Below are positions 1,982-40,498 of a DNA stretch of 64,000 bases, piece after piece; position 1 is the stretch's first letter; each line of letters starts with the position of its first letter. The DNA lies in IMG/VR virus record IMGVR_UViG_3300038409_000069, positions 1-64,000 of that record. One strand, written 5' to 3'. The translations under genes were made by a program, and so were the position numbers. Below the pieces are notes generated by a model, which was not told the DNA's origin, made no database searches, and saw only the letters and a list, made by a program, of their open reading frames with translations. Source of the DNA: a virus.

Positions 1982-1997
1982 GTCCGGCGGGGGCGCC

Positions 1998-3146
1998 ATG
2001 GGGAAGGACCGGGTCCGCTATTACCATACGGCGGGCGGGAACGCGTTCTGGAAGCCGGGGAAGTTCGCCAAGGCCTATGGCCTGCCCGGCTCGCGACCGC
2101 TTGGCCCGGACGGCCCGGAGGCCAGAAAGCGGGCGATCGAGTGGACCGCAAAGCTCGATGCGGCGCGGGAGTCGAAGCGCAAACCGCCGCCCTCGAAATA
2201 CCCGCCCGGAACGCTCGGCTCGTTCTGGGAGACGCTCCCCGACCGAGACGCCTTCCAGATCATGGAGGCCCGCACCTGGGAGGATTATCCGCGCGCCTGG
2301 CCGGCGATCGAGCCCCGCTTCGCCCTCGTCCGCGTCGACAAGATCAGCCCCGAGGACAGCGAGCGCTTCCACCGGGACATCCATCCGGCCCACGAAAACC
2401 GGTTGCGTGACCCGGAAGGCAAACTCAAGCTGTCCTGGAACGAGGCCCACCGGGTTTTGAAGGTGTGGCGCGCGCTGCTCTCTGCGCTGGTCGCCTACCA
2501 GATCCTCAAGGCGGCGCCGATCGGGCGCGTTTCGAATCCGGCGCCAAAGGGACGGGAGGCCGTTTGGCTCCACGACGAGCTTACCGGCCTCGCCGAGTGC
2601 GCCGCGTTCGCCGGCTATGTCGGCATGGCGGTAGCCATCCGCATCGCCTGGGACGCCATGCTGTCGCCCGTGGACGTGCGTCTCCTGCCGCTCTCGGGCT
2701 GGCGCGGGGACGAGGCGGCGACGCAGCGCAAGAAGACCTCCAAGCGCGTTCTCCACGCCATCACTCCGGAGACGCAGGCGATCGTCGAGGCGTATATCAA
2801 TGATCTACGCCGCCGCGGCGTCGAGCTCTTGCCCGATGCTCCCCTGATCCGCCGGCCAGACGGAACGGCCTACCGGACCAAGCGCTTGTTCGCCGGCGAC
2901 TTCCGGGTCGTGCGTGACTTCATTCGGCCAGGCGAGACCCGCCAGTTTCAGGACATCCGCCGATCCGCCGCGACCGAGGCGCGCCTGGGCGACGCGACCA
3001 AGGACGATATCGGCGCAGCCATGGCCAACACCGTCGCTGAAAACGAAGCCCTCGCCGAGACCTACATGCGCGCGGCAAGCCGGCGAGTGCTGGAGGCCCG
3101 CACGATCGGCCGCCCAAGGATGGCCGCGCGATTTCGGAATCCGTAG
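1998..3146 (+). CDS. Divergent tyrosine recombinase (phage integrase-like), 382 aa
   Basis: Predicted site-specific recombinase. The C-terminal half carries a recognisable box II (FQDIRRSAATEA, about residues 324-335) and a probable nucleophile Tyr in AETYMRA about 30 residues later, plus a Lys-rich beta-hairpin (QRKKTSKR). Box I is unusual: where canonical enzymes have the first Arg, this one reads AMLSPVDVR. The His of the HxxR motif and the later His/Trp are also replaced. Known divergent prophage integrases keep the DxRR and Tyr in the same way, so activity is plausible but unproven. Starts at TTG 1935 and ATG 1962 are possible; ATG 1998 minimises overlap with the preceding gene. It is the last gene before a 444-base gap that may hold the attachment site. 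Confidence 0.75.
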   Translation: MGKDRVRYYHTAGGNAFWKPGKFAKAYGLPGSRPLGPDGPEARKRAIEWTAKLDAARESKRKPPPSKYPPGTLGSFWETLPDRDAFQIMEARTWEDYPRAWPAIEPRFALVRVDKISPEDSERFHRDIHPAHENRLRDPEGKLKLSWNEAHRVLKVWRALLSALVAYQILKAAPIGRVSNPAPKGREAVWLHDELTGLAECAAFAGYVGMAVAIRIAWDAMLSPVDVRLLPLSGWRGDEAATQRKKTSKRVLHAITPETQAIVEAYINDLRRRGVELLPDAPLIRRPDGTAYRTKRLFAGDFRVVRDFIRPGETRQFQDIRRSAATEARLGDATKDDIGAAMANTVAENEALAETYMRAASRRVLEARTIGRPRMAARFRNP

Positions 3147-3398
3147 CGGCGACATTGATTTTATTTGGCGTTTTCGACAGCCGGTTTCCGAAACCGGCGT
3201 TGATTTCATTAAAGAACGAGCCGGCCTGCCTGGCCGGGCCGAGCGGATATTTTCCTACATACATTCAAGCGCTTACTGAGCCATTGCGGAAAGTCAAAGC
3301 CGGGTCATTCCGAAATTGGGCTGCAGGCGTTCGCGCTCCGCCGCCCAGCCGTTCGCCCTCCGCACATTCGCGGAACGTCTCGGGGCCGCGTTACGATC

Positions 3399-14390: not shown

Positions 14391-14558
14391 ATGCCCGTTG
14401 AAGCCGTCGCATTCCTTGGCGGACTGGGGCTCTTCGGCATTTTCTGCTGGGCCGCAATCCAAGACATGAACAGGCCGCGCAAGCGCCGCCGTTACCCTGG
14501 TCCGCCGGGCTCGCTTCGTCGCCATAAACGGGAGCTATCGGGTATCCTGGATGAGTAG
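14391..14558 (+). CDS. Small membrane peptide, 55 aa
   Basis: ATG at 14391 is one base after the stop of 13958-14389; stop TAG at 14556-14558. One N-terminal hydrophobic segment (VAFLGGLGLFGIFCWAAIQ) is followed by a very basic tail (NRPRKRRRYPGPPGSLRRHK). Its end overlaps the last 24 bases of the opposite-strand giant gene. It forms an operon with the preceding membrane protein. Confidence 0.55.
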   Translation: MPVEAVAFLGGLGLFGIFCWAAIQDMNRPRKRRRYPGPPGSLRRHKRELSGILDE

Positions 14559-17500
14559 CTCGCGCGCACTGTCCAGCGGGTCCTCGGTTACATCTTCCTC
14601 GCCCGTCGCAATGTCGGTGAGCGCCTCGCCTGTAATCCACATCTGCCTCGACGGCAGGCCCGCGGCATAGCCCGCACTCATCAGGGCTTGCTTGACAACC
14701 TCTTCGCTATCGCCGCGCTGGGCTGCCTGCGTCAGCTTGATCGGCGCTTCGATAGCAGCTTGCGCAGGCGTGGCCTTGTAATCATAGCCTGTCACAGCCG
14801 CGTTGAGCGCATCGCGAACGATAGGGATACCCTGGAGCGGATAGAGCGCGACTTCCAAGGCGACGCGTGTGTTGCGCTCCTCATCGTCTTCATCGTCCTG
14901 CGGCTCGAGCCGGCCATAAAACCACATGGTAGCGAGCGCCGGCAGGAACCAGACGAAGGCCATGTTGGCCGCGAAGCGCGCCGGGCTGATCTTGCCGGCC
15001 AGCACGCCAGGGATTTGCTCGACGAACATCTGGTTATAAAACGAGTTCGCCCACGACATAAAAAGCGTGGCGAGGCGCCAGAACTGGTTGTCGTTGGCGA
15101 GGATCGATGCAAGGTCTTTCGGGGCGCCGCCGGACTGCGTAGTCCTGACGATGCTATCCGCATGCTCGACGGCAGCGGCTTCATCGCCTTGCTCAATTCC
15201 AGGAACCTTGCCGGCGAGAGCCGTTTCATAGCCAGCGAGCCACGCAGGGCCAGCAACCGCCATGTCCATGAGCTGAGACAGGATCATCATCTTGTCCTGC
15301 GCCGCCTTCGGGACCTGAGGCAGGATGCCGGGACGCTCGCCGAGTTTCGTCGCCATTGCATCGCGGACGTCCCGATCAAAGTTCGCCATCCGATGCTTCA
15401 TGAAGTCGGAGCGGTCGAAGATGAATTGGAAGCGGGCCGGCAGCGTCTCCGGGGCGCCGAACAGGCGCGCGGTCTGCCTCGCCAGGAACTCAGGATAGTC
15501 GCGCGCGATCGTTATGCCCTTCTGCTTGAGCATCGGCAGGATGCCAGTTCGTGGGATGGCGTTGAGCGCGCCCAGTTCTTGAATCAGCGCAGTCGTGATC
15601 TTGATGCCCATGGACACGACGGTCGCATTGTTGCGCACCTTGGCGACGACGCGCTCCCAGGAATCCATCACGCGCGGCTGGGGCTGCTCGACCTTCGAGA
15701 CCCAATTGTCGAGCACCTTGACGCCCCATGGCCCGAGGACGCCGCTCACCGCAGCCGCCACGCGCTCCGAGGCAATCAACCTGCGGGCGTCGATGATGAG
15801 CTCGCGATGCGTCAGATCGTGGACGGTTTCCTCGACGTGCTCGGAAATAACCGAGATGGGATCGAGGCGGAACGCTTGACCGGCCGTGCCGCGGCGCTGC
15901 TTGAGGCGCCCGCGCTTGGTTCCGATCTGGCGATAGGAGCCGCCCGATATTTGCTCGACGGCTTCCTTCGCCTCGCGCTTGGCTGCTCGCCGCGATCGCG
16001 TTGCATCGAACTTGACCGGAAAATAGCCGCCGCGGAACGTTCCGAAGCGCGTTTGAACGGGGAGCGGCTCCACTTCCTCCGGGCGCACGCCGCGGACGCG
16101 CTCGTCGAGCGCGAAGCTCTCGGCCTTGAACGATTCGAGGAAGTCCCACACGGACTGCACGAAATTCCAGTCACGCTGATCCAAGCGCCTGAGCACAGCT
16201 TGAAGCTGATCTTCCGACCAGTTGAAGCCCTCCATCATGTGTTCGCGGTTGTAGGCGTTTCCGACGTTCAGCGCGACGCCGATCTGTTGCAGCTTCGTCA
16301 GGTTGTCAGCGATCTCCGGGATGAACTCCTTTTTGAGGAGCATCCGGCCAAGCTCTTTCTTGGAATAGACCGACAGGATGTCCTTGAAGCGCTGCGTCTC
16401 TGTAACCAGGCGCTCGGTCTTGGCCGACTCGGCGCGCTGTGCGGCGGGAATGAATGCCGAGAACCACGGGCCGTTGGCCTTGAGTCCGTCCATGAAGCGG
16501 AAGAGCTGTTCGGCCTTCACCATGGATCCGTGAATGTCCATGACGAGATCGACAGCCCGCTCGAAGCGCGAGCGGGAGGCGAGCGACCGCACGATATGAG
16601 CGCGCTTCGGGTATTCCTGTTCAGCCTGGACGACGAGCCCTTCGATCACTTCGTTGAGCTGGCGGTTCTTGCGATCGGTCAGAACCTTGTTCCAGCGACG
16701 CCCGAGCTGGTCGAAGTTCGACACAACATCGCGCAAGCCGCGAACCTCTTCCATGCTGAGCGAATTGAAGGGCCGGCGCCTGATGGCTTCGAGAAAAGCC
16801 GGGTCCATCTCGACGATGTCGTCAACGTCGATGCCTTCGTTTTCCAGTTCAGTCAGGTAGTCCCGGAACGAAGCGCGGGCGCGCGCGCCAGGATAGGGCT
16901 TCGCGCGCAAGTCCACCGCTTCGAGAACCTGATCGATCTGGTCGAGATGGCGACCGCCGCCGGGCAGGAACGCCTTGCGGGTTCCCTCGTTGTCAAACTT
17001 GCGCAGGTAGCGCCGAATCCGGTCGGCTTCATCCGCTGCGGCCCGCGCCAGCCGATACATCCAGAAGCTCGCCAGTTGCCGCGATTTATGCAACGACGCC
17101 TGCGCGTGATCGCCCTTTGCAAGGGCTTCCATGGCATTCCTCGCGGCCCGCCGTTCGCCCGCCAAGAACTTGTCATACGAGCGAACTTCACGCACGCTCA
17201 TATTATTGACGGCGCGCTCTGCAAACTGTCTTGCGGCCCTGTTCGCCGGCGTCACCCGTCCGCCGGCGGCCTGTTGGATCGCGGCGAACTCAAGTTCAAG
17301 GACGCGGGCCTGGGCCTCTGTATTCGCCGCCGCGCGCGCCGCTTCGGCGATGGTTCCATCGCGTAGCGGATCCCCATACTCTGCCTCGAGGCGGGCGTCG
17401 ATGCCTTCTTCGATCGCCTGCGCCCGCGGCTTCAGGCCGCGCAAAGCTTGGATGAGTTCGTCGCCCGATGAAAACCCGAACCAGGTCGCCGCGAGATCGG

Positions 17501-20500
17501 CCGAAACCGAATCCCCGCTCTCCGCCTCCCGGTCGAGCGCCGCCGCGATCTGCTCGCGGATTTCGTCCTTGTTCTTGGTGAGATCGATCCCGCGGCTTTC
17601 GAACCATCGGCGCATGTCGTCGCGTCTCTGGTTTTGCTCAACCGCAGCCTCATCGTCTACCGAATAGACGGCTCTCTCTCCCTTTATGTCGGAGATGAGG
17701 GTCTTGATGAATTCTTCCAGGGTTGGGCGTTCAGGGCCGGCAAACAATTCGTCTTGCGCCAGCTCAACCGGGTCGTTGATGACAAGCGTCCCGTTGCTCC
17801 GGCGCATGAAGTTCTGCGGACCAAGGTCGAAGAAGTAGCGCGGGGCATCCGCTGGCAGAGTCTCGCGCAGGTATGCGCGCAGCGCATCCATCGCCTGAAG
17901 GATGGACTTGCGTTGCGGATCGTTCTCCGCCAAGCCTGTGATAAAGAACCGGCCGTTCTCAACACCCACGCGGGCGCGTGTTTGGTTCTCTTCCAGCCGT
18001 TCAGTGCTGAAGCGGATGCCGGACTCCATCGAAGCCGCTTCGCCAGGGTTCGGCAAATGCTTGGCGTAAGGGGCGCCCTCGGCATGAGCTTGACGCGCGA
18101 AGTCGAGAAATGCACCCGTCACCATATCGGGGCGCATTTCAACGAAGACCGAGCGAGGGTCATTCGGATCAGCGAAGACGGATTTGGATCGCCCGCGCCC
18201 GATCCGTTCGGGGCCGGCGAATAGTTCGTCTTGGGAGAGTTCTTGGGGGCCGACAACTTGCAGGCCGCGTCCTTCGAGGATTTCCAAGGCCCGCTCGTGG
18301 TTTGCAATTTCCCGTTGGCGAGCGCCGTAGGAACTGGACTTCGGGTTCTGTGCCGTAGACCGCGATCCCAGCCATTCGATCTGCGCGCGCATCGCTTCTA
18401 CGGCGGCAGTTCTGTTGCCATGATCGTCCAGGTATTCGCGCACAAGGTCGGCCGGACGGCCCAGCATGCCCTTGTTCTTCTCGACGAACTCGCGCAGCGT
18501 TTGGTCTGTGATTGCAGCCTCGTATGAGGTGCGGATCGGTTTCTGCGTGGCCTCCCTTGAAGCCGTTTGTTCGGTGCGCCGCGGAAACGGGATGACATTC
18601 GAATCGTCGCCCTCTTGGAAAAGTCGCCCCCCCTTCGCCGGCTTCACCCCAAAGTACCCAGCCTCAAACGCTCTTTCTGCAAGAGCATCCGGATCGAGCC
18701 CGCTTTCGTTGTTGATGAGGCCCGGCCTTGCGCGAGGATCGCCGAGGGCTTGCCTGATTTCTCCGCCGGTGTCTTTGATGCCGCCTTGGGCGCGGACCCA
18801 TGCTCCAAGTCTGAGGGCCGTCTTGCGCTTGCCTTGCTTCTTCAGAGCCATTGCATCGGCGAGGACTCTTTCGATGTCCTCAGGACGTGCAGGACGCAAT
18901 GCGGGCGGCAATTCATTCAGGATGTTTTCGCCGTAGTCGTCGACGAGAGCTTGCGCGGAGAGCTTCATCGGCGGAAGGTCTTCGGGCTTCGCTTCCTCTC
19001 CGGTCGGGGCGACGACGTTGCCGTCTTCGTCCGTCTCTTGCGGAAGATCGCGCCATTCGCCAAAGGCGAGCCAGTCATGCGCTCGGCGCGCCGGATCGCT
19101 GTCCACCTCCCGCTCAATCGCCGGACGAATGCGCGCCCGTTCTGAGCGCCACCAGCGCTTTTGCTTTCTGGTATATGTCTCCATGACGCGGGCGCGAAGT
19201 TCTGCCTCTTGGGCTTCTCTGGCGCCTGCGATGGCGTTCTGATAGTCTGCCCAAGCCGCTTCGCTCAATCCGCTTTCTTCGCGCGTTGCGAAGATCGGAC
19301 GATCGACGCCGGCCGCTGCTCTCGCCTCCGCCATCTCTTGTTCGGTTGCGAGAAGCCTGTCGAATACATCCCTGATCTGGGGATTGAGGTTCGCATCAAG
19401 GCGCATCACCGAGCGGTAGATTTGCAGGAGCCACGCCTTGAACGCGGCGAAGGCTTCGCGCAAGCCGAGGCTTGGCGCTTTGCCTTCCATAAGGTAGGCT
19501 TCGAACGTGCGCGCCCACAATTCGTGGTAGTCGCGCCGCTGTTCGAGCGTCATGCTCTCCCACTGGCCCGGCTGCAAACCGAACCAGTTCTGTGTCGATG
19601 CCCACATGTCCTTGAGTTCTTGCGGGGCTTGCTCATCCAGAGAAACCGCCTGCAATATCTCGAGGAACAGGTGGCCGGATTCGTGCAGGAAGGTCGAGAG
19701 ATCGGAGGCTTCGAAAAGGTTGATGGTCGCTTGGCGGAGGCTTCCGTCTGTGGCGAAGCGGTCCAGCAAGATAGAGCCCCTCTTCCCTTCCTGCGAGCGG
19801 GACTGAAACAGCGGCATCCCCTCTTTCAGGACGCGCTCTTTCATTTGGGGGGTGAGGTCGAGGACGTAGGCGGAGGCTTGAGAACGTTCCTCGGGCCCTC
19901 TTACATAGCCATCACGGAGCCGGCCTCTCCCCTGGATATCGCGCAGCGTCGCGGCGGCCTCCTCGCGCGTCGCAAAGTTCTGACCATAAGCCGGGCCCTG
20001 CGTATCCCAAATCGCGAAAGGCGCTCCCGGATCATTGGTCGCATTTCGATCTGTCCGACCGAATTGAACGCTCCCCTCCCTCACCTCCCCGCCCATCGCA
20101 TGCGCCACTTTCTTCACAGCGCCAAGGACGTTCGTGTCATAGTGAGATGCGGCTGAGTCGTTGCCCTGGATCAGCTTTGAAGTTTCACCAGTCGGAAACG
20201 ACACACTATCGAACCCATCCCTTGCGGCTCTATAGATGATCGCTCTTACGGCTGCGCCGGTCCAGGCTGAGGTTTTGGAGGCGAGGGGGGCGCGGACGAA
20301 TTCCGAGCTTCTCCATTGCTGCAATCGTGCTTCAAGTTCCGCGCGAGTGTTGCTATGCGGCTGCTGCGCGGCCTCGTCCGCAGTTAGAGGCTTGAAGGTG
20401 CCGCTCTCGAAAAACTGCGTAGAGGGGTTGTCGGCAAGGACTTTCTGCAAGGTTTCGATTGTGTCCTTGACGGCCCGCGCCTGCTGCCCCAAATCGCTTT

Positions 20501-23500
20501 GCACCTCCCCCCCGAACAGCGTCCTTTGTCCCTTGTCGTCTATACGCTCTTCGCCTCTTACTGAGACCAGGACGCCTAGGTCGTTTGAGGGGGGGCGGGA
20601 CCAGTGGGATTGGAAGTCGGAGCCGGGCATCTTCGGAAGGTTCCGCAGCTCTTCGTAAATCTGCGCGCTGCGCTCGGTGAGTTCCTTGCTCGGCGGCTTG
20701 TCGGCATTCTCCGCCAACTCGCGCAAGAGCGCCGCTTGTCGTTGCTCTGTCTCCCCACTGAACTCCGGAATCTTCAGCCTCAGCTCAAACACCGGCTCAT
20801 CCCCAGGAAGACGGAGATCGCCGGGGCCGCGGCGGATGCCTGCTTCTTGGAATGAGCGGATTTGTTCGGCAGTGCGAGGCCCGGCAAAATTGAAGCCCAT
20901 GTCTTCGGGGGCCAGGACGTCGAACATTTCCTCTTCATAGTCCGCCTGTTCGATGGCGTCGCGATTGCGCGGGTCCACGTACTCCTCAAGCGTCATCGGT
21001 TCGCGTCGGGTTTGCGCCCTCGGATCAAACCGATTAAACGCCTCATTGAGCACAAGCCTATTTGCGCGTATGTGATAGAGAAGTTCTTCTTTCGTGACGG
21101 ACTTCCGCGAGCGGAATTCATCCAGCCCGAGGAACTTCATTTCATCCGCTACGCGACCCGTAAAGCCTGTGACGCCTCTCGCCTTGGCGATCCTGTTCAG
21201 GGCCTCCTCTCCACGCATGGCGCGATCGGGAAGCGCTTTCGCAGCCTCAAGGGCTACGGACATGAAGCCTAGGGCGTCGAGTTCCCGCTGGGTTTGGAAG
21301 AGTTCGCCGCCTTCTGTTCCTGGGCCTCCCTCTCCCACCGATCCGCCAGTTCGTTGGCCTCCTCCTCGGTCAGAAACCCGAGCGGGTCGGAGCGCCTCGA
21401 CCTTTTCGTAGAAGGCGTTGTCTCTGGCGGCGAGTTGCTTGTCACTAGCCCGCTCCTTCTCGAAAGTGTCCGATGGAAGGTTTCCAAGATACAGGATTTC
21501 GCCGTTCGGCGATACGTCCACGTCATCGCGAAGGATGTAGATGGAATCCTCTTCCGGAACGTCCTTGATGTGGTAGCCTTCCGGCAACGGCCTGCGGCCC
21601 AGGAATGCGAGGTAGGCCCGGCGGTGAGCCTCAGTCTGTGGAGTGAAGACATAGGCGCCGCGTTGCATATCGGCCATGTCCTGCAAGAGGATGTCAGCAA
21701 CGCCGTCGAAAATCGCCTTGAGTCCGCTCAAGCCGAACTTTTCCGCGCCCCGCTCGTACATCCGCTCATGGCGGCGCAGGCGCCCCAGGAACGTCCAGTC
21801 AACAGCAGCAGCGTGGCCGTTCTCAGGCTCGGGCGCAATCTGAACGATGACGTGCTCGTTGCCAACCGCAAAGCCATAGCGGCGGGCCGTCTTGGCTTCT
21901 CCCGGAATCGGCTCGGAAACGACATCCTCCGGCGCAAGCGCGGCTTGGTCAAGTTCCCCGCCTTCTTCGTTCATAACGCCGCGCAGAACGCTGTCAGCCG
22001 GCCCTACGTTGCCGGCTTCAGCCTGCCTTGCCCGGGCCTCCTCCTCCCGCGCAAAGCGCACCAGGGCGCGCTGCACCGGCGTGCGCTCGGTATGCGGCGT
22101 CGCCAGAGCCTGCTGTGTCGCGGCTTCCCATTCTGGCGTCTCAGGCTCCGGCAATTGCGCCGGCGGCTCTGTGCGGCCCGTGCTGAATTGGCGGCGCGCA
22201 TCGGCCGGGGCGCCGCGCTCCAGCGTCCGCTCCTGAATTTCCCGCATCGCTTCGCCGGCGCGCTCGGCGGCGGAGCGGACGCGTTCGGATTCGTCAAAGT
22301 CGGCCTGCTCCAGTTCCTGCGCGTCGGCGGCTTCCTCTTCGGCGAGGATTGCATCGAAGCGCTCGCGGGGCGTCGGCTCCGGGCGCATCGGCTGCGCGCC
22401 TTTCAGCGCGGGAGCCGCTTCGTCTTCCTGCGCCGGGCCGCGGACATTGAAGCCCTCTCCGAACAGGGTTCGCAAGAACTTCTCGGTCCGCTGCGCATAG
22501 TCGCCCTGCCCTTTGCGAGAAAGCGCCTGGATGGCGCGGGCCAGAGCGCCGTACATTTTCGCGTACCGTGCATTGACTTGCGGGCTGGTTCCGCCTTCAC
22601 GGTAGGCTTGATCCAGAAGTTCGCGGACTCGGGCTTCGACGACGGCGCCAATCTCGTCGTCGCTCTGCGCGATCTGGGCTTCGTTGGCAATATCCTCAAC
22701 GCGCTTGCGGATCACTTCGATTTGGGCTTCGCGTTCGGCCGGCGTCGCCTCGTTCGGCGAGCGCCGAGCGAAGTTCTGAAGCGATGCATGCGCGGGAACG
22801 CGCAGCACGCGCGCCGCGAATGTTCCGCTCGGCATCGAGACTTGGGCGTGTGCGGCAAGCGCCTGTTCAAGCCTTTCGGCGCCGATGCCGAGTTGATCGG
22901 CGACGGTGAATGGATCGGCGCCCGCCGACTGGAAGTGCTCGACGAAGCGGTCCGCATCGATGAACACTTCGCTCGGGTCCATCTCATTGACGGCGCCTTC
23001 GAGCGCGGACGGAAGCCGCTGGCCAAGTGCAGACTTGCGCGCCGCTTCGGTCTGCTGTTCGAACAGCGCGGCGTTGCGGTCAGCCGCGGCGACTTCGCGA
23101 AGGTCGAGCCCGAGATTGACGCTCGACGGGATTGCCGCAAAGCCTATGCCGCCCTGCGCGCCGATATAGCCGGCGCGCAGAATTTGCTCGATCGCTTCGG
23201 GCGTGAAGACCTTGCTCCACGCCGTCGCCGCGTCGCCCTCGCCTGCGCCCCGCTCCGTCTCCTGCTGGGCAAGGTCCTGGTGGATGATTTGGGCAAGCTG
23301 TTGCGAGGCTTCCTCGACGCCCTGATCGACGGACGTGGCTGCAACGTCCGCCAGCGCCCGCCTGTAAGCCGGCGCAGCGCCCGGGCGGACGATGCCGCGT
23401 CCGGCGATCGCGCGCGCCCCGAGCCGCCCAAGGCCTGATAGGCGCAGCCCCAGCGCATCGCCGACGAATTCGAGCGCCGTCGCCCAGGCGCCATAGGCTT

Positions 23501-24437
23501 CAGCCTGCCTCGCCGCTGCGTCAGGATCAGCGCCGGCGCGCAGAAACTCGACGTAGGCCTGTCCCGTCTCCTGCTCGTTTCCGAACGACAGGTAGCCGCC
23601 GGCGAAGCCGCCGAAGCCTCCGATGGCGGAGCTGACGCCGGCGATCGGCGCGACCAGAGCGGCCCTTCCTGCTTCGCCTGCATCTCCAGCCAGCACCTTG
23701 CGCGCAATCTCGCGGCGCTCGGCTTCGTTGCCGTAGGAGCCGGAAAACGCTTCGTCTGTTCTGCGGGCCGCCTGCCGGCCAGCCCGTTCGAGCGAACCGA
23801 GCACCTGCGGCGCGAGCCGTGCGGTCGGCCCTAGGATGAACGGACCCCAATCGTCGCCGCCCTCGCGGGCCTGGAGTTCGTCAAGCCTCGCTTGCTCTTC
23901 GGCCGTGAGCGCCGGCCCCCTGCCGCGCTGCGCCTGATACGAGCGATAGCCGAGCTTGCCGAGCTCGACGTCGAGCTGGCCTTGGCGGAATTGCGGACGC
24001 GGATCAATCCCGCCGCGGCGCAGCGGCTCAAGAACCAAGCCCGGCGAGAACAGGACGCCAGCTTGCAGCGCGATTTGCTGCGCCGTTGGATCGCGCGCAA
24101 GCCTTTCGAAGATCGACAGCGTTTCTACGTCATCACGGGCGACTGCAATGTTGTTCTGGTTTTCAAGCCAGCGCCGCAAGCGCGGACTAGTCTCTGTCTG
24201 TTGCTCAATGCGCTGCGCTTCGGCGGCGCGCGAGAAGACATCGCGATATGTCGTGACGGCTTGCCGCGGCTGACGCACGATTTCGCCGATTTGCGCATCG
24301 ACGGCGGCCTCGTCAGGCGTTTGCACTTCCTGCGTCAGATTGCGATGGATGGGCGACGGCAAGGCGCCCTCGCGGTCCTCGCGCTCTTCGTCGGATTCGA
24401 GCGGATGCGTGTCGAGCCATTCCGAGAGCGTCGTCAT
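14535..24437 (-). CDS. Giant polyvalent internal virion (ejection) protein, 3,300 aa
   Basis: It occupies the T7 gp16 position, after gp14- and gp15-like genes. No polymerase motifs are seen. Visible modules: a helical N-terminus with Gly-rich hydrophobic stretches (about 255-285); a region near 1075-1130 (ADEMKFLGLDEF, VTKEELLYHIRAN) and an 'EVQSD...' domain (about 1300-1500), both typical of phage large polyvalent proteins; a zincin-like metallopeptidase with HESGH at 1585-1589; a kinase-fold-like patch with DLGPQN (2204-2209) and NDP (2221-2223); then about 900 mainly helical residues with a hydrophobic segment near the C-terminus. It is probably ejected with the DNA. The start overlaps the previous stop. 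Catalysis is predicted only from motifs. Confidence 0.8.
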   Translation of the reverse strand: MTTLSEWLDTHPLESDEEREDREGALPSPIHRNLTQEVQTPDEAAVDAQIGEIVRQPRQAVTTYRDVFSRAAEAQRIEQQTETSPRLRRWLENQNNIAVARDDVETLSIFERLARDPTAQQIALQAGVLFSPGLVLEPLRRGGIDPRPQFRQGQLDVELGKLGYRSYQAQRGRGPALTAEEQARLDELQAREGGDDWGPFILGPTARLAPQVLGSLERAGRQAARRTDEAFSGSYGNEAERREIARKVLAGDAGEAGRAALVAPIAGVSSAIGGFGGFAGGYLSFGNEQETGQAYVEFLRAGADPDAAARQAEAYGAWATALEFVGDALGLRLSGLGRLGARAIAGRGIVRPGAAPAYRRALADVAATSVDQGVEEASQQLAQIIHQDLAQQETERGAGEGDAATAWSKVFTPEAIEQILRAGYIGAQGGIGFAAIPSSVNLGLDLREVAAADRNAALFEQQTEAARKSALGQRLPSALEGAVNEMDPSEVFIDADRFVEHFQSAGADPFTVADQLGIGAERLEQALAAHAQVSMPSGTFAARVLRVPAHASLQNFARRSPNEATPAEREAQIEVIRKRVEDIANEAQIAQSDDEIGAVVEARVRELLDQAYREGGTSPQVNARYAKMYGALARAIQALSRKGQGDYAQRTEKFLRTLFGEGFNVRGPAQEDEAAPALKGAQPMRPEPTPRERFDAILAEEEAADAQELEQADFDESERVRSAAERAGEAMREIQERTLERGAPADARRQFSTGRTEPPAQLPEPETPEWEAATQQALATPHTERTPVQRALVRFAREEEARARQAEAGNVGPADSVLRGVMNEEGGELDQAALAPEDVVSEPIPGEAKTARRYGFAVGNEHVIVQIAPEPENGHAAAVDWTFLGRLRRHERMYERGAEKFGLSGLKAIFDGVADILLQDMADMQRGAYVFTPQTEAHRRAYLAFLGRRPLPEGYHIKDVPEEDSIYILRDDVDVSPNGEILYLGNLPSDTFEKERASDKQLAARDNAFYEKVEALRPARVSDRGGGQRTGGSVGEGGPGTEGGELFQTQRELDALGFMSVALEAAKALPDRAMRGEEALNRIAKARGVTGFTGRVADEMKFLGLDEFRSRKSVTKEELLYHIRANRLVLNEAFNRFDPRAQTRREPMTLEEYVDPRNRDAIEQADYEEEMFDVLAPEDMGFNFAGPRTAEQIRSFQEAGIRRGPGDLRLPGDEPVFELRLKIPEFSGETEQRQAALLRELAENADKPPSKELTERSAQIYEELRNLPKMPGSDFQSHWSRPPSNDLGVLVSVRGEERIDDKGQRTLFGGEVQSDLGQQARAVKDTIETLQKVLADNPSTQFFESGTFKPLTADEAAQQPHSNTRAELEARLQQWRSSEFVRAPLASKTSAWTGAAVRAIIYRAARDGFDSVSFPTGETSKLIQGNDSAASHYDTNVLGAVKKVAHAMGGEVREGSVQFGRTDRNATNDPGAPFAIWDTQGPAYGQNFATREEAAATLRDIQGRGRLRDGYVRGPEERSQASAYVLDLTPQMKERVLKEGMPLFQSRSQEGKRGSILLDRFATDGSLRQATINLFEASDLSTFLHESGHLFLEILQAVSLDEQAPQELKDMWASTQNWFGLQPGQWESMTLEQRRDYHELWARTFEAYLMEGKAPSLGLREAFAAFKAWLLQIYRSVMRLDANLNPQIRDVFDRLLATEQEMAEARAAAGVDRPIFATREESGLSEAAWADYQNAIAGAREAQEAELRARVMETYTRKQKRWWRSERARIRPAIEREVDSDPARRAHDWLAFGEWRDLPQETDEDGNVVAPTGEEAKPEDLPPMKLSAQALVDDYGENILNELPPALRPARPEDIERVLADAMALKKQGKRKTALRLGAWVRAQGGIKDTGGEIRQALGDPRARPGLINNESGLDPDALAERAFEAGYFGVKPAKGGRLFQEGDDSNVIPFPRRTEQTASREATQKPIRTSYEAAITDQTLREFVEKNKGMLGRPADLVREYLDDHGNRTAAVEAMRAQIEWLGSRSTAQNPKSSSYGARQREIANHERALEILEGRGLQVVGPQELSQDELFAGPERIGRGRSKSVFADPNDPRSVFVEMRPDMVTGAFLDFARQAHAEGAPYAKHLPNPGEAASMESGIRFSTERLEENQTRARVGVENGRFFITGLAENDPQRKSILQAMDALRAYLRETLPADAPRYFFDLGPQNFMRRSNGTLVINDPVELAQDELFAGPERPTLEEFIKTLISDIKGERAVYSVDDEAAVEQNQRRDDMRRWFESRGIDLTKNKDEIREQIAAALDREAESGDSVSADLAATWFGFSSGDELIQALRGLKPRAQAIEEGIDARLEAEYGDPLRDGTIAEAARAAANTEAQARVLELEFAAIQQAAGGRVTPANRAARQFAERAVNNMSVREVRSYDKFLAGERRAARNAMEALAKGDHAQASLHKSRQLASFWMYRLARAAADEADRIRRYLRKFDNEGTRKAFLPGGGRHLDQIDQVLEAVDLRAKPYPGARARASFRDYLTELENEGIDVDDIVEMDPAFLEAIRRRPFNSLSMEEVRGLRDVVSNFDQLGRRWNKVLTDRKNRQLNEVIEGLVVQAEQEYPKRAHIVRSLASRSRFERAVDLVMDIHGSMVKAEQLFRFMDGLKANGPWFSAFIPAAQRAESAKTERLVTETQRFKDILSVYSKKELGRMLLKKEFIPEIADNLTKLQQIGVALNVGNAYNREHMMEGFNWSEDQLQAVLRRLDQRDWNFVQSVWDFLESFKAESFALDERVRGVRPEEVEPLPVQTRFGTFRGGYFPVKFDATRSRRAAKREAKEAVEQISGGSYRQIGTKRGRLKQRRGTAGQAFRLDPISVISEHVEETVHDLTHRELIIDARRLIASERVAAAVSGVLGPWGVKVLDNWVSKVEQPQPRVMDSWERVVAKVRNNATVVSMGIKITTALIQELGALNAIPRTGILPMLKQKGITIARDYPEFLARQTARLFGAPETLPARFQFIFDRSDFMKHRMANFDRDVRDAMATKLGERPGILPQVPKAAQDKMMILSQLMDMAVAGPAWLAGYETALAGKVPGIEQGDEAAAVEHADSIVRTTQSGGAPKDLASILANDNQFWRLATLFMSWANSFYNQMFVEQIPGVLAGKISPARFAANMAFVWFLPALATMWFYGRLEPQDDEDDEERNTRVALEVALYPLQGIPIVRDALNAAVTGYDYKATPAQAAIEAPIKLTQAAQRGDSEEVVKQALMSAGYAAGLPSRQMWITGEALTDIATGEEDVTEDPLDSARELLIQDTR
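17754..18233 (-). repeat. Repeated QDELFAGPER peptide flanking a kinase-like module
   Basis: The giant protein contains QDELFAGPER twice, at residues 2069-2078 and 2228-2237. The about 150 residues from the first copy carry a nucleotide-loop-like IGRGRSKSVF and the DLGPQN...NDP motif. The arrangement looks like domain insertion or duplication at a short repeat. Confidence 0.5.
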
Positions 24438-26053
24438 CGGGCCTCACTCGCAAGGAAGCGCGCATAGGTGGCTTCGACGTATCCGACTGTCGGCTGCCTG
24501 CCTCCATGCGTATTCTGATAGCGCAGCACGATCTCGCGGCGCGCATCCCGCGGAATGAGATCGAACGGCACGACAGCGGCTGGCGTTACTCCTTCGCCAA
24601 GCGCTCGAAAGCCTTCGCGCCGCCCCCTGCTTTCCTGCACGCGCAGCGGCGCAACCACTCGTTCGCGAGGAAGCCGCACGACCGCGCGTCCGATCATCTC
24701 CTGCGTCTCCAAGGCGTTCGGAAGCCGCCGCTGGCTCTCGACAAACGGTACAACCTCTTGAAGGAGGGCGCTGTTAAAGGCCGACGACGCCGCGCGCGCT
24801 GCATCGCCCTCGCGTCCGCGTCTGTCGCCCGGCGTCAAATCGAAACGGTCGCCGAGCATCGCCTCGGCGATGTTCCGCACGGCGCCGTAGGCCTGCGACT
24901 GGAGATCGACGGCGCCGCCGTTCGGACCGCCTTGAAGCGACTGTCTGCGCTCCAGTAGCCGCGCAACGTCTCCGCCGCTGATCTGCGTCGAGTCCGCATC
25001 CGCAAGGATGCTTTCAAGCCAGCCTTGCCGTGTGAATTGTCCCGGTTGTGTCAGCGCAACGTGCAGGAGCCCGAGATAGGCGGGGGAATTGTCCTTGGCC
25101 CTGCCCGCACCGCTTGCATACGACTGCGCCCGCGTCCGGTAGGCTTCGGTGAGTCGCGCATAGGATTGGCCAAGCAGCGGGTTTGATGTGAGTTCGCGAA
25201 ACGCCGCCGGATCGAGCGAGGAAAGCGGACGCCCTGCGGCAAACGCCTGCCAGCCCATCCCCTCCACCTGATCGATATACTCTCTCTGTGCGGCGCGCAT
25301 GGTAGTGCGCAATTCGCCGGCGGCTTGTGCATCAAGGCTTGGACGGATGCGCTCAAACAGCGCTTCGGCTTCGGTCGGACTGGAAACCGCCATTTGCTGA
25401 ATGACGGACGTGTAGATGCCCGACTGAATGGCTCTCACCCGGGCCTGCGTCTGTTCAGGCGACCAGCCATTGCGGCGCGCCACGTTCTGAGCCTCGCCGA
25501 TCGCTGTTGCGATGTTGGCGCGCACCGCCGCTTCATCGCCCCACGCGGCGACTGCGCCGCTTTGGGCCTCCAAGATGCGCGCTTCGCTCTGCTCGTTCTG
25601 ATAGGTGTTGGACTCGCGAGCGAGATGGGTCGCCACGGAATTGAGCGTGTCAGTCGCATGCTGCGAGAGCGCTTGGCGAGCCAGAGCCGCGGCGCGTGGC
25701 GAGCGCGCCCGAGAGACGATCTCGTCAAGGTCTTGTTGGATCCCCGTTTCGATTTCCTGGCGCCGTTCGAGCGCTCCAGCGCCCCGCGCCGTGCTCAGGT
25801 ATCCCGTCTCCGGGTTGTAGAGCCGGTCTCGGGTGCGCGCCCTGAATTCCGCGTCGAGTTCTCGGGCGTTCGCCTCGTTGAACTCATCGTCGACTTTCTG
25901 CGCTGTCTGGGCGACCGTTTCGAGCCCGTGCGCTACGCGCGCAGTCGCCCGCGCTTCGAGCGCGCCAAACGCATCTTCGTCAGCCTGCACGCGCAATCTC
26001 GCGCCTGCGGGCTGAAGCTGGGCTTGATCCTGTATGACGGGAACCGACGCCAC
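24434..26053 (-). CDS. Internal virion protein (T7 gp15-like position), 539 aa
   Basis: GTG at 26053 (VASVPVIQDQAQLQPAGARL) begins five bases after the preceding stop; the frame extends to 26305 but there overlaps the Gly-rich gene. The product is almost entirely helical, Ala/Arg/Gln/Glu-rich, with no signal or membrane segment and a C-terminal helix ending ATYARFLASEAR. Order and composition match the central ejection-channel protein of T7-like virions. It is ATGA-coupled to the giant protein. Confidence 0.65.
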   Translation of the reverse strand: MASVPVIQDQAQLQPAGARLRVQADEDAFGALEARATARVAHGLETVAQTAQKVDDEFNEANARELDAEFRARTRDRLYNPETGYLSTARGAGALERRQEIETGIQQDLDEIVSRARSPRAAALARQALSQHATDTLNSVATHLARESNTYQNEQSEARILEAQSGAVAAWGDEAAVRANIATAIGEAQNVARRNGWSPEQTQARVRAIQSGIYTSVIQQMAVSSPTEAEALFERIRPSLDAQAAGELRTTMRAAQREYIDQVEGMGWQAFAAGRPLSSLDPAAFRELTSNPLLGQSYARLTEAYRTRAQSYASGAGRAKDNSPAYLGLLHVALTQPGQFTRQGWLESILADADSTQISGGDVARLLERRQSLQGGPNGGAVDLQSQAYGAVRNIAEAMLGDRFDLTPGDRRGREGDAARAASSAFNSALLQEVVPFVESQRRLPNALETQEMIGRAVVRLPRERVVAPLRVQESRGRREGFRALGEGVTPAAVVPFDLIPRDARREIVLRYQNTHGGRQPTVGYVEATYARFLASEAR

Positions 26054-26057
26054 GGGG

Positions 26058-26390
26058 CTACTCCAGAAAATCGTAACCGCTGCCGCCGGAGCCGCCGCCG
26101 CCCGCGCCGCCGCCAAAACCTCCGCCCCCTCCGCCTCCGCCGCCGGCCACGCTTGCGGACTTTGCTTCGCCCTTCGTCGCGCGCGCCCACCGCGCCACGC
26201 TGGCAAAGCTCGACGAATCGAGCGCGAAGAAGTCAGCCTTCGCCACTTCCGTATCCGCCTTCGCCTTTGTCGTGACGACCCTCGGAACAGGCTTGGAATT
26301 TGCATTGTAAATCGGGATAGAGCGCGTCAGCAGATCAAGCCGCGGCGTGCGCCCGATAATGCGCGGCGCAGGTTTGGGGGATCGAGCCAT
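26058..26390 (-). CDS. Gly-rich-tailed virion-associated protein, 110 aa
   Basis: The likely start is ATG at 26390 (MARSPKPAPRIIGRTPRLDL); in-frame starts at 26396 and 26450 are alternatives. A short Pro/Arg N-terminus and a central Lys/Ala segment are followed by a polyglycine tail of more than 20 Gly-dominated residues ending GYDFLE. It sits between two internal virion genes. A linker or plug role is possible; no family recognised. Confidence 0.55.
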   Translation of the reverse strand: MARSPKPAPRIIGRTPRLDLLTRSIPIYNANSKPVPRVVTTKAKADTEVAKADFFALDSSSFASVARWARATKGEAKSASVAGGGGGGGGGFGGGAGGGGSGGSGYDFLE

Positions 26391-33233: not shown

Positions 33234-33470
33234 CTACCAGCGGAGATCGTAGATCAAGAATCTGGGCTCGAATGGCCTCAGCGCCAGATAGCGTCCAGTT
33301 GGAATAGCGTTTTCCGGAACAAGCACCCAAGGCCCCTGCTCCGAAGGCCCTTCGTAGAGATCGGCGCCCGAATCCACTTCGCGCATGAAATCCTGCGCCG
33401 GCTCACTAGGATCAGGCGAACCTTTGGTCATGGACAGGATCAATTCTGAGCGTGTCGGCTGTCTCGTCAC
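33234..33470 (-). CDS. Hypothetical protein, 78 aa (GTG start)
   Basis: The GTG at 33470 overlaps the TGA of the mutase gene. An internal ATG at 33431 is an alternative. The product has a beta-rich second half (GPWVLVPENAIPTGRYLALR) ending FLIYDLRW. It is the last gene before the scaffold transcription unit. Function unknown. Confidence 0.5.
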   Translation of the reverse strand: MTRQPTRSELILSMTKGSPDPSEPAQDFMREVDSGADLYEGPSEQGPWVLVPENAIPTGRYLALRPFEPRFLIYDLRW

Positions 33471-34552
33471 AGTTCCAACCTCCGAAACGCCGCCATAGCC
33501 TGCCCCACCACCTGGTGCATGTCCATGTACTGGTAGGTTGCGAGTCGGCCTATAAAGATGACATTCTCTTGCTGGTCGGCGAGGTCGCGGTAGCGCTCAT
33601 AGAGTTCTCTATTGGCCGGCGCCGGGATTGGATAGTATGGCTCGCCCTCCCCGCTCGGGAACTCTGTCGTGATCGTGGTGTAATCGCACTCTTGGCCCGT
33701 GATGTGGCGCCATTCGATTGTCCTTGTGAACGGCTGCCAGGATGCGGGATAGTTGATCTGGGCGCAGGGCTGGCGCAATCCGCCCGGGTAGGTTTGATGG
33801 TGGAAGGTGAGGGAGCGGTAGGGGAGCGGGCCGAACTGATGCGAAAAATATTCATCGATTGGGCCAGTCCAAGCCATGCGCGGGTAGCGCTCTTTGGCGT
33901 GCGGCCCATTCTGCCAGCGGTAGAGGAACTTGCCGCGGTCGTCGCGTAGGCGAACCTCAATGCCCGGATGATCCAGCATCCGCTCAAACATCTTCGTATA
34001 GCCATCCTTTGGGACGGCTTGGTATTTGTCGCGGAAGACTCGGTCGTCTGTGTCGTCGGGGCGGAACGGGATGCGCGCCGTCACGCTGGGGTCGAGTTCA
34101 GTTGCCGCCCTCCCCCAATGCTTTTCGGTGTAGTCCCTGAAGAAGATTTCGTAAAGCGTAGCGCCCACGGTGTTGATGGCTTGCTCTTCGGCGTTGCGCG
34201 GGTTCGGGAACTGGCCGGTCTCGCCCCAAGCGTACTCAATCATGCACATCGTATCGCGGTTGATCGGGAATGGCAGAAGGTGGCCGTTCACGCTCGCCTT
34301 CACCCGGTGCTCGTATGGCGTCCACTCGGTGAATCGGGAGAGGAAATCGAAAACCACGTCGGAGTTGGTATGGAAAGCATGGACCCCGTATTTCTGGACG
34401 AGAACGCCGTATTCGTTCACATAGTCATAGGCGTTGCCGCCGATGTGGTCGCGCTTGTCGATGATAAGCACACGTTGGCCAGCCTCTGCCAAAAGGCGAG
34501 CCATGGTGCTTCCGGCAAATCCGGCGCCGACGATGAGCCAGTCATAGGACAC
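33467..34552 (-). CDS. glf: UDP-galactopyranose mutase, 361 aa
   Basis: Flavoenzyme that interconverts UDP-galactopyranose and UDP-galactofuranose. The N-terminal dinucleotide fold is DWLIVGAGFAGSTMARLL, then IIDKRDHIGGNAYDY. Later family signatures include KYGVHAFHTN, the Arg/Tyr-rich region FRDYTEKHWG, and a C-terminal FIGRLATYQYMDMHQVVGQA. Length is normal for the family. The start is GTG at 34552, exactly adjacent to the stop of the 25-aa frame upstream. Galf is an unusual sugar, so it is presumably incorporated by the neighbouring glycosyltransferases into a surface or virion glycan. Confidence 0.9.
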   Translation of the reverse strand: MSYDWLIVGAGFAGSTMARLLAEAGQRVLIIDKRDHIGGNAYDYVNEYGVLVQKYGVHAFHTNSDVVFDFLSRFTEWTPYEHRVKASVNGHLLPFPINRDTMCMIEYAWGETGQFPNPRNAEEQAINTVGATLYEIFFRDYTEKHWGRAATELDPSVTARIPFRPDDTDDRVFRDKYQAVPKDGYTKMFERMLDHPGIEVRLRDDRGKFLYRWQNGPHAKERYPRMAWTGPIDEYFSHQFGPLPYRSLTFHHQTYPGGLRQPCAQINYPASWQPFTRTIEWRHITGQECDYTTITTEFPSGEGEPYYPIPAPANRELYERYRDLADQQENVIFIGRLATYQYMDMHQVVGQAMAAFRRLEL

Positions 34553-34630
34553 TCAGTAGCGCGGCGTCTTGCGCGGCGGCTTCGCCGGCGGGCGGGCGAC
34601 CTTCTTAGGCGGGGATGGTTTCTTGGGCAT
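34553..34630 (-). CDS. Tiny basic peptide, 25 aa
   Basis: ATG at 34630 to TGA at 34553, encoding MPKKPSPPKKVARPPAKPPR and five more residues. It overlaps the end of the glycosyltransferase gene by 26 bases, and its stop is immediately followed by the GTG of glf. The Lys/Arg/Pro-rich content resembles nucleic-acid-binding tails. It may be a real peptide or simply a coupling ORF. Confidence 0.4.
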   Translation of the reverse strand: MPKKPSPPKKVARPPAKPPRKTPRY

Positions 34631-35603
34631 TGGCTCTCTCCTGGTTTAGGGCGGTGAAGACTTTGCGGGTTTCGGCGAAGAACGTCGTGCGCTCTTTTGC
34701 GATGTGACCGAACCCGATATAATCCAGGTTCGGCTCGGCGATCTGGAGGCGCTCGACAACCAATTCGGCGGTGGAGCGCAGCGCTGGGTCGTCTCGCCAC
34801 GGGCGAGGGCTGGGATCGTCGCGCCAACCGTAAACCTCTTCGCACGCGCCGAAACAAAGTCCCGTGACGACGTCGCACCCCATGCTCGCCGCCTCTCTCG
34901 GCAGTCTGTCCTTCCCCGGAAACGTTCCAAGATCGACATAGACGCGGGCCTGCGCGAAGAGCTTGGCGATCTCAGCACGAGGGACTCCGCCGCCGATCGC
35001 GGCTATCTTGATCCCAGGGTCAAGGCGTTCGATCTCCTGCGCAATGGCCGGCAAGTCGGCAATGACCTTGTCCGGCCGGGCGTTGAAGGCCACGAGCTTT
35101 GGCCGCTCTTCCATCGGCATAGGCTGAGCGTATTCGGTCAGGTCGACCGTGTAGTCCGAGAGCATGCCGAGCGAGTTGAATTGAAGCGCCTCGATGAAGC
35201 GCTCGGCATATCGAGACTGGCAGGCGTGAAAGACGTTCGGCTTTCGAAGGTGGTTCAGGTTGACTTGGCTTAGCGCCCCGAAGGAATTGTCGACGCTGAG
35301 CCACCAGACGAGAACCTTGGCCTTGCGCCAGGCTTGAACCAGAGGCGCCGCAGTCTCGGGGATGACGACCACGTCGCCCTCTTGATCCGGGATCGAGTGG
35401 GCGAGGTTGGCCTTGTAGCGATCGTATTCCGGGGCGAACGGCGCATAGGCGGGGAACTCGCGCACCCCGTTTTTGAGATCGTCCCACTTGAAATAGACGA
35501 GCCTTGCATCGAACCCCTGCTCTATCAGAGCGTCGGAGAGTTGATGCGTCGCCTCGGGGCCGCCGGTGACGATGCCGTGGAGGGCCAGAATAAAGATGGT
35601 CAT
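34605..35603 (-). CDS. Putative glycosyltransferase (GT-B-like), 332 aa
   Basis: ATG at 35603 overlaps the preceding stop; the frame extends further but only in Arg-rich antisense. The N-terminal half (MTIFILALHGIVTGGPEATH) and a nucleotide-sugar side with RDDP..., PGKDRLPREAASMGCDVV suggest a two-domain GT-B-type fold with an ExxxxGC-like donor loop near residues 240-255. It sits in the sugar cluster next to glf. Donor (possibly UDP-Galf) and acceptor unknown. Confidence 0.6.
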   Translation of the reverse strand: MTIFILALHGIVTGGPEATHQLSDALIEQGFDARLVYFKWDDLKNGVREFPAYAPFAPEYDRYKANLAHSIPDQEGDVVVIPETAAPLVQAWRKAKVLVWWLSVDNSFGALSQVNLNHLRKPNVFHACQSRYAERFIEALQFNSLGMLSDYTVDLTEYAQPMPMEERPKLVAFNARPDKVIADLPAIAQEIERLDPGIKIAAIGGGVPRAEIAKLFAQARVYVDLGTFPGKDRLPREAASMGCDVVTGLCFGACEEVYGWRDDPSPRPWRDDPALRSTAELVVERLQIAEPNLDYIGFGHIAKERTTFFAETRKVFTALNQERANAQETIPA

Positions 35604-35800
35604 GCCGTCGGCGCACTCGGCGCGGCCTCGTCTTGCCTCATTTCTTCGGCGACAACCGACAGATGCCCTAAACATTCCGCTATGTACGGAGGGTCGGCAA
35701 AAGTGTCTTGGTTCTCTGGCAGAGCCGCGTTTTCCCTGAGGGATTTCGCGGTTCGCTCGGCTGCTTCGGCGATAATGTCGAGCACTTCATCGCGCGTCAT
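35600..35800 (-). CDS. Hypothetical protein, 66 aa
   Basis: Small acidic helical protein (MTRDEVLDIIAEAAERTAKS...), ATGA-coupled both upstream (35797) and downstream (35603). It has no recognised domain. It lies between the Bbp19-like gene and the glycosyltransferase. Confidence 0.55.
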   Translation of the reverse strand: MTRDEVLDIIAEAAERTAKSLRENAALPENQDTFADPPYIAECLGHLSVVAEEMRQDEAAPSAPTA

Positions 35801-36150
35801 GATTCAGACTCCTCAGTCTCTTCAACCGCATCTTCCTTCGGCTCTTCCCGCCGCCCCGGCCCATCATGCTCTCTCAGCATCAAAAGCCAGTTATCGTGAT
35901 GAACCCGTTTGCAGCGCTCTTCAAGAGTCAGGGAGGCGGCGTGCTTGCCCAATGCGCGGAAAGTCATGTGCGTGTCGGATGCGCCGCCCTGCGTCTGCAT
36001 CGTGAGCGGATCGCGTGAGCCGCATTCAACATAGGCCCACCACAGAAAATCGCGGCCAAGCGGACTGGCGAGGGTCTGGGCAAGCCAAGTGTTGATGTTC
36101 TCCTCGCGGATGCGGATCGCGTTCTGCGCGTCGCGCTCGCGCCTGCTCAT
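35797..36150 (-). CDS. Bbp19-like protein, 117 aa
   Basis: The central segment (LASPLGRDFLWWAYVECGSR followed by a Thr/Ser stretch and a helical end) matches the small Bbp19 domain of BPP-1-like phages, thought to be virion-associated. The C-terminal 20 residues are acidic. It is coupled to both neighbours. Confidence 0.6.
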   Translation of the reverse strand: MSRRERDAQNAIRIREENINTWLAQTLASPLGRDFLWWAYVECGSRDPLTMQTQGGASDTHMTFRALGKHAASLTLEERCKRVHHDNWLLMLREHDGPGRREEPKEDAVEETEESES

Positions 36151-40363: not shown

Positions 40364-40498
40364 TCATGCCAGTTTGAAGTCTCGGCGGCAGCGCCGACAG
40401 CGGTTCACCCTGGCCCTATTGTTCAGGGCGTCGAACGTTATGCCCTCTTCAAGATCGTGGAATGTCAGGCAGCACAGGAGCCAGCCAATCAACTTCAC
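40364..40498 (-). CDS. Small Cys-rich protein, 44 aa (GTG start)
   Basis: GTG at 40498 overlaps the TGA of the epimerase gene (GTGA); stop at 40364. The product begins VKLIGWLLCCLTFHDLEEGI and ends in an RCRRCRRDFKLA segment with a CxxC. Small phage proteins with an N-terminal MKL.. stretch and a C-terminal knuckle (DUF1660-like) look similar. It lies in the gap before the reductase gene. Confidence 0.5.
   Translation of the reverse strand: MKLIGWLLCCLTFHDLEEGITFDALNNRARVNRCRRCRRDFKLA

What the first reader, a model, noticed from the sequence alone, without database searches (positions are those of the whole stretch)
14535..24437. 3,300-residue polyvalent protein in the T7 gp16 position
The ejected inner-core protein here appears to carry several extra modules: a zincin-like HESGH site, an 'EVQSD' domain typical of phage polyvalent proteins, a region like ADEMKFLGLDEF and a kinase-like patch. 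Delivery of multi-enzyme effectors through the ejection channel would be a distinct take-over strategy.
Basis: partly seen in the sequence, partly recalled or inferred. Interest (0 to 1): 0.75.

Follow-up and report, generated by a model that had tools for sequence, protein, structure and literature searches.

The report
Modular phage ejection protein with protease tags
This giant phage protein belongs to a common family of probably injected multi-part proteins with a built-in protease, and its swapped-in modules are bordered by a short tag (a hydrophobic residue, any residue, then glutamine) that tracks this protease-bearing family and looks like a cutting site.

Summary
In detail: one 3,300-aa ORF with all four named motifs, in the last internal-virion-protein slot of a podovirus structural operon. 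It is not homologous to T7 gp16. It is a distant homologue of Bordetella phage BPP-1 Bbp10 (phrog_9880), a large family: 201 complete non-redundant members were analysed here. The HESGH zincin is not an added module but the family core (HExxH in 201/201), and was already described in Bbp10 (CLCA_X, 2013). The 'ADEMKFLGLDEF' and 'EVQSD' patches are one composite, uncatalogued module. The kinase-like patch is weakly supported, rare, and lacks the usual ATP-binding lysine. Multi-enzyme injected 'polyvalent proteins' were proposed in 2017, so the take-over idea is not new.

New here: accessory modules in this chassis are bounded by [L/F/Y]-x-Q. At the conserved C-terminus of the EVQSD module the residue after 'PLF' is Q in 21/22 copies in zincin-bearing chassis but 2/37 elsewhere (S/A/T). 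ART-type module ends show the same switch (24/26 versus 1/9). The tag precedes the zincin in 130/134, and in 61/67 of a separate set (background 38%). I propose chassis-matched processing sites, with the zincin as likely protease. Cleavage and virion presence are untested.

The parts
14535..24437 (-). 3,300-aa Bbp10-class ejection/polyvalent protein gene (366 kDa)
   Evidence: ORF; phrog_9880 E=5e-292; tblastn to BPP-1 Bbp10 and about 40 phages; mass
24072..24338 (-). LPD22 domain (aa 34-122), N-terminal scaffold
   Evidence: Pfam PF18834 E=3e-16; found in 16 of 18 family proteins scanned
22278..23993 (-). N-terminal scaffold regions N1 (aa 149-460) and N2 (aa 470-720)
   Evidence: family HMMs
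21303..21890 (-). orphan region aa 850-1045 (slot A), no match
21294..21302 (-). LFQ junction tag 1 (aa 1046-1048), just before the FYS/EVQSD module
19803..21293 (-). FYS/EVQSD composite module (aa 1049-1545); holds ADEMKFLGLDEF and EVQSD; ends DLTPQMKERVLKEGMPLFQ
   Evidence: family HMM hits aa 1053-1139 (3e-19) and 1184-1454 (6e-33); alignment A4
19803..19811 (-). LFQ junction tag 2 (aa 1543-1545) between EVQSD module and zincin
19278..19802 (-). zincin domain (aa 1546-1720): HESGH 1585-1589 and E1639 as likely third zinc ligand (HE-x-x-A)
   Evidence: H1585, E1586, H1589, E1639, A1642 invariant in 18 aligned family proteins; HExxH in 201/201; AF2 pLDDT mostly 80-96
18651..18911 (-). GGI domain (aa 1843-1929), found before the zincin in most relatives, in slot B here
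18615..18623 (-). LFQ junction tag 3 (aa 1939-1941)
17727..18242 (-). kinase-like module flanked by a near-identical 13-residue direct repeat EL[SA]QDELFAGPER (copies 18204-18242 and 17727-17765; DNA 30/39)
17766..18200 (-). kinase-like core (aa 2080-2224): GRGRSKSVF, DLGPQN catalytic loop, NDP (DFG-like)
   Evidence: phrog_3809 4e-5 and T7 kinase family 0.44; colinear pieces with T7 gp0.7
14538..17498 (-). conserved C-core (aa 2314-3300)
   Evidence: C-core HMM; 38 phage records cover at least 80%

Best explanation
The gene encodes a Bbp10-class internal (ejection) virion protein: a conserved chassis (LPD22 - N1/N2 - zincin - about 1,000-residue C-core) with two cargo slots, one before and one after the zincin, into which unrelated effector modules are exchanged. 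Here slot A carries an orphan region and the FYS/EVQSD module, and slot B an orphan region and a minimal kinase-like module. Modules are separated by a chassis-specific tag, [L/F/Y]-x-Q, which imported modules adopt at their borders. The most likely meaning is that the tag is the P3-P2-P1 cleavage signal of the chassis's own zincin (or, less likely, of another phage protease), which releases the modules in the virion or after ejection. For this protein, cutting at the three LFQ sites would give about 114, 55, 45 and 152 kDa pieces (1-1048, 1049-1545, 1546-1941, 1942-3300). Shown: homology, synteny, slots, module exchange, tag statistics. Inferred: virion packaging, zinc binding, cleavage, its timing, and the modules' activities.
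For: Homology and synteny with BPP-1. HExxH in 201/201 members; E1639 and A1642 invariant in 18 aligned family proteins. Slots: zincin-to-C-core gap 572 aa here, median 102. Tags: before the zincin 130/134 versus 38% in random 30-mers, 61/67 in a separate genome-contig set. Before the FYS module 30/32 in this chassis versus 6/24 in other long polyvalent proteins with the same module, p=9e-8. Residue after the EVQSD module's ...PLF is Q in 21/22 versus 2/37, p=1e-12. ART-type ends [LFY]xQ 24/26 versus 1/9 (others mostly RxS), p=2e-5. L.Q is the most over-represented of 400 i,i+2 pairs in slot A, also with the zincin junction removed. LFQ is depleted in the C-core, 4 observed versus 16 expected. 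The quick tree of the module needs at least 12 changes of chassis (6 forced by starred branches), so the tag follows the chassis. BPP-1 capsid and cement proteins are not cleaved (PMC3863775), which gives no sign of a prohead protease acting on them.
Against: No cleavage data. The sequences are related: with the quick tree only 5-6 supported independent chassis changes exist (about 4 for, 0 against, 2 ties; sign test median p 0.125), so the p values overstate independence. In the separate set L.Q in slot A is only fifth of 400 pairs (86 versus 55). The GGI domain is not followed by the tag above background (54/111 versus 48%). Many [LFY]xQ triplets also lie inside folded regions, so the triplet alone cannot be the whole signal. 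N4 vRNAP, which also has an HExxH domain, is packaged uncut (PMC5512222).
Confidence: 0.55

Rival explanations
1. The [LFY]xQ tags are recombination seams or inherited linker, not cleavage sites: modules are gained by recombination within chassis-derived flanks, and the Q is carried along.
For: The tagged proteins share a chassis by descent. Module exchange between slots is visible (GGI domain before or after the zincin; FYS-type module in slot B of L102). A near-identical repeat flanks the kinase-like module.
Against: At the module's own C-terminus the flanking TPxM+...G.PLF is conserved in both groups and only the next residue changes, Q versus S/A/T; a second module type switches from RxS to [LFY]xQ. 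Surrounding linkers do not align.
Confidence: 0.22
2. The sites are processed, but by another phage or host protease, and the zincin acts on host proteins as an effector.
For: Effector zincins are known in conflict systems (PMC5512222). FYS/EVQSD proteins without this zincin end in PLF followed by S, A or T, so other proteases may serve other chassis.
Against: The Q tag tracks the chassis that always carries the zincin. BPP-1 capsid and cement proteins are uncut, and the 'protease' of the BPP-1 record looks like an acidic scaffold protein.
Confidence: 0.13
3. Ordinary structural ejection protein: the inserts and motifs have no enzymatic role and the tags are flexible spacers.
For: No module of this protein is catalytically proven; the FYS/EVQSD model is of low confidence (pLDDT 56.5) and fold searches found nothing.
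Against: Invariant HExxH + E in the zincin; conserved H, R, E, Q, S residues in the EVQSD module; relatives carry ART, PBECR nuclease and GNAT domains in the same protein.
Confidence: 0.1

Closest known systems
Bordetella phage BPP-1 Bbp10 family (phrog_9880)
   Same: Homologous over zincin (about 40% identity) and C-core (28%), same gene neighbourhood, LPD22 N-terminus in the family
   Different: 2,052 aa in BPP-1; window has a longer slot A and a 572-aa zincin-to-C-core stretch (median 102) with kinase-like insert
Polyvalent proteins of Iyer et al. 2017 (PMC5512222)
   Same: Multi-domain, virion-gene neighbourhood, zincin, LPD22, kinase-like domain; zincin processing already proposed there
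   Different: No junction code linked to chassis was found described; the EVQSD module has no Pfam entry
CLCA_X zincins (Lenart 2013, PMC3650047)
   Same: Residues 700-1000 of Bbp10 are a seed of that family; HExxH site
   Different: Published consensus HExxHxxxD; here HExxHxxxE, as in Bbp10 itself
T7 gp16 and N4 virion RNA polymerase
   Same: Same position or role as large ejected internal proteins; N4 vRNAP also has an HExxH domain
   Different: No profile homology to T7 gp16 or to the N4 C-terminal region
T7 gp0.7 protein kinase
   Same: Glycine-rich motif and D-[LM]-x-x-x-N...DP motif in the same order
   Different: beta3 lysine absent here, separate early gene in T7, BLAST E only 0.034 for the single pair

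Membership tests
Bbp10 family (phrog_9880) | profile match over the C-core and zincin | tested here: met
   phrog_9880 E=5e-292; C-core aa 2314-3300
Bbp10 family (phrog_9880) | gene order nozzle - internal virion protein - gp15-position protein - this gene | tested here: met
Bbp10 family (phrog_9880) | SLT transglycosylase in the preceding gene (common, not shown to be required) | tested here: not met
   SLT in BPP-1 and Carin1 counterparts, none in window:24434-26305
Polyvalent proteins | several disparate domains in one polypeptide near virion genes | tested here: met
   LPD22, zincin, EVQSD module, kinase-like patch
Polyvalent proteins | injected into the host with the DNA | not testable with these tools
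   needs virion and infection proteomics
Zincin metallopeptidase (CLCA_X) | HExxH plus downstream Glu ligand | tested here: met
   H1585 E1586 H1589 E1639 invariant in 18 aligned proteins; HExxH in 201/201, of which 184 fit a downstream Glu pattern
Zincin metallopeptidase (CLCA_X) | HExxHxxxD consensus of the paper | tested here: inconclusive
   E in place of D, as in the Bbp10 seed
Zincin metallopeptidase (CLCA_X) | zincin fold | tested here: inconclusive
   AF2 mostly confident (pLDDT 80-96) with strands, HExxH helix and Glu helix; Foldseek found no PDB match; ligand distances not measured
Protein kinase | catalytic DxxxxN and DFG-like Asp | tested here: met
   D2204, N2209, D2222
Protein kinase | beta3 (VAIK) lysine | tested here: not met
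   SVFVEM at 2096-2101; nearest Lys is K2085 in GRGRSKSVF
T7 gp16 | sequence homology | tested here: not met
   hhalign probability 0.8%
N4 vRNAP C-terminal region | C-core homology | tested here: not met
   profile-profile probability 0.4%

The most novel reading that the evidence does not exclude
Injected polyvalent proteins use a chassis-specific 'border code': each chassis has its own short junction tag ([LFY]-x-Q with the CLCA_X zincin; [LM]F-S-R or R-x-S in other long polyvalent proteins), matched to its own processing protease, and effector modules moving between phages are re-tagged so as to be released correctly. The code would let one find module borders, proteases and new effectors from sequence alone.
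Probability: 0.42. Interest if true: 0.8.

Novelty: new variant of a known kind. Interest (0 to 1): 0.6.

Why it matters
The 2017 polyvalent-protein proposal left open how one injected giant is split into working parts and by what signal. A border tag that differs at one homologous residue (Q instead of S/A/T) when a module sits in a zincin chassis gives a concrete, cheap test of that idea. It would also supply a sequence rule for cutting many unannotated phage giants into modules, and the FYS/EVQSD module is a recurrent, uncatalogued candidate enzyme.

Tried and rejected
Homology to T7 gp16 and to the N4 vRNAP C-terminal region (single-sequence hint, lost with proper profiles). A prohead-protease origin of the tags: BPP-1 capsid and cement proteins are uncut, and only two [LFYI]xQ sites are in the window capsid protein. 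Relatives of the kinase-like module: none in phages, viral contigs or genome contigs, one sub-threshold hit in plasmids. Fold identity of the EVQSD module: low-confidence model, no Foldseek match. Fold match of the zincin plus slot B model: none. Tag after the GGI domain: at background, serves as a negative control. A generic 'LFQ everywhere' reading: LFQ is depleted in the C-core.

Full report
Observation. The ORF at 14535-24437 (-) is intact and 3,300 codons long and holds all four motifs. It lies in a 70,376-bp virus record, in a podovirus structural operon: portal (phrog_332), major head protein (phrog_212), gp11-like (phrog_394), nozzle (phrog_376), internal virion protein (phrog_418), gp15-position protein, this ORF, then a large ORF in the tail-fibre position. 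The order is that of BPP-1. 'T7 gp16 position' is therefore fair, but there is no detectable sequence homology to T7 gp16.

Family. phrog_9880 matches at 5e-292. The C-terminal 989 residues are matched in 41 phage records (38 with at least 80% coverage; Bordetella, Caulobacter, Xanthomonas, Pseudomonas, Vibrio, Cobetia, cyanophages), in 562 or more viral-contig stretches and in 113 genome-contig stretches. In 201 complete non-redundant members the median length is 2,287 aa and six reach 3,300, so the size is in the upper tail but not unique; Mel-JY33 and others are larger.

Chassis and slots. HMMs built here show a constant chassis: LPD22 and N1/N2 scaffold, zincin, C-core. HExxH is present in 201/201; H1585, E1586, H1589, E1639 and A1642 are invariant in 18 aligned family proteins. 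Bbp10 residues 700-1000 were already used as a CLCA_X zincin seed (PMC3650047). The zincin is thus the core, not an added part. Variable cargo sits before it (slot A) and, rarely, after it (slot B: 572 aa here against a median of 102). Relatives carry ART, PBECR nuclease and GNAT domains.

Modules of this protein. ADEMKFLGLDEF and EVQSD belong to one composite module, aa 1049-1545, found in 21 of 134 members of the first set and 0 of 67 of the genome-contig set (p=1.4e-4). It also occurs outside the family: in Pelagibacter phage HTVC028P as a separate gene beside internal virion protein genes, and in a cyanophage of 209 kb. It has no Pfam entry; phrog_7348, labelled endolysin, matches 14 of 22 members. 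Conserved H, R and E-x-Q-S-D suggest an enzyme, but the model is poor (pLDDT 56.5). The slot B insert ends in a kinase-like core, aa 2080-2224: GRGRSKSVF, a DLGPQN loop and NDP match phrog_3809 (4e-5) and, weakly, the T7 kinase family (0.44), in the order of T7 gp0.7. The beta3 lysine is missing; K2085 in the glycine-rich strand recalls WNK kinases, which is from my own knowledge and untested. Polyvalent kinases that lack the C-lobe are described in PMC5512222.

Junction tags. Reading the module borders showed LFQ at 1046, 1543 and 1939. In slot A of relatives LFQ is 3.7 times over-represented; in the C-core it is four times under-represented. [LFYIVM]xQ lies just before the zincin in 130/134 against 38% of random 30-mers, and in 61/67 of a second, genome-contig set. 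L.Q is the most over-represented of 400 i,i+2 pairs in slot A even without the zincin junction; in the second set it is fifth.

Is the tag a property of the module or of the chassis? I fetched the same FYS/EVQSD module from other proteins. Before the module the tag is in 30/32 zincin or C-core proteins, 6/24 other long polyvalent proteins and 11/33 short ones, background 25-30%. At the module's C-terminus, where TPxM+...G.PLF is conserved in both groups, the next residue is Q in 21/22 zincin chassis (the exception looks like a spurious regular-expression match) and in 2/37 others, which mostly have S, A or T. A second module type, the ART-like end IKSA.GN.G.FDPxxPxI, continues with [LFY]xQ in 24/26 zincin chassis and with RxS in most others (Q in 1/9, that one a fragment cut at a contig end). 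A quick tree of the module needs at least 12 chassis changes, 6 forced. Independent pairs nearly always go the predicted way, but supported pairs are too few for significance. The GGI domain, found in many members, is not followed by the tag above background.

Interpretation. The tags behave like protease sites matched to the chassis. The zincin is the natural candidate: it is always present, processing by zincins was proposed for polyvalent proteins, and BPP-1 capsid and cement proteins are not cleaved. None of this shows cleavage. N4 vRNAP with its HExxH domain is packaged whole (PMC5512222), so cutting, if any, may happen after ejection.

Structure tests. The zincin region is modelled mostly with pLDDT 80-96, strands and helices in zincin order, but Foldseek returned no significant PDB match for the whole 711-aa model, and I could not measure ligand distances. 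The kinase-like part of that model was in effect a single-sequence prediction and is not evidence.

Verdict. The protein is a new, large member of a known kind; the take-over idea is published. The chassis-matched junction code is, as far as the held literature shows, undescribed and directly testable.

Noticed in passing
24434-26305 (-): The gp15-position protein lacks the SLT transglycosylase domain that BPP-1 Bbp11 and Carin1 gp33 have; the muralytic domain of this virion was not found.
   Followed up: partly
33467-37094 and 40495-41553 (-): Sugar genes inside the virion cluster: by eye a UDP-galactopyranose-mutase-like ORF and glycosyltransferase-like ORFs, plus an epimerase (phrog_540). 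Perhaps glycosylation of virion or host surface.
   Followed up: no
17727-17765 and 18204-18242 (-): Near-identical repeat EL[SA]QDELFAGPER flanks the kinase-like module; DNA only 30/39 identical, so an old duplication or conserved border.
   Followed up: partly
L102 aa 673-1663: A close C-core relative carries 990 aa in slot B with a second HExxH-type motif (LIHELQHIIQ) and an FYS-type module ending in ALFQ: cargo can sit in either slot.
   Followed up: partly
viral and genome-contig loci: FYS/EVQSD module in 21/134 members of the first set but 0/67 genome-contig members; perhaps tied to lytic life style or to sampling.
   Followed up: partly
BPP-1 record, L002:2681-3370: Bbp18 is annotated 'protease' but reads as an acidic scaffold-like protein; Bbp10 is annotated 'crystallin beta/gamma'. 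Both names may mislead.
   Followed up: partly
long polyvalent proteins without this zincin, such as L272, L310, L341: Their module borders carry LFSR or RxS-type tags (FS tag 9/24 against 0/32): a possible second border code with another protease.
   Followed up: partly
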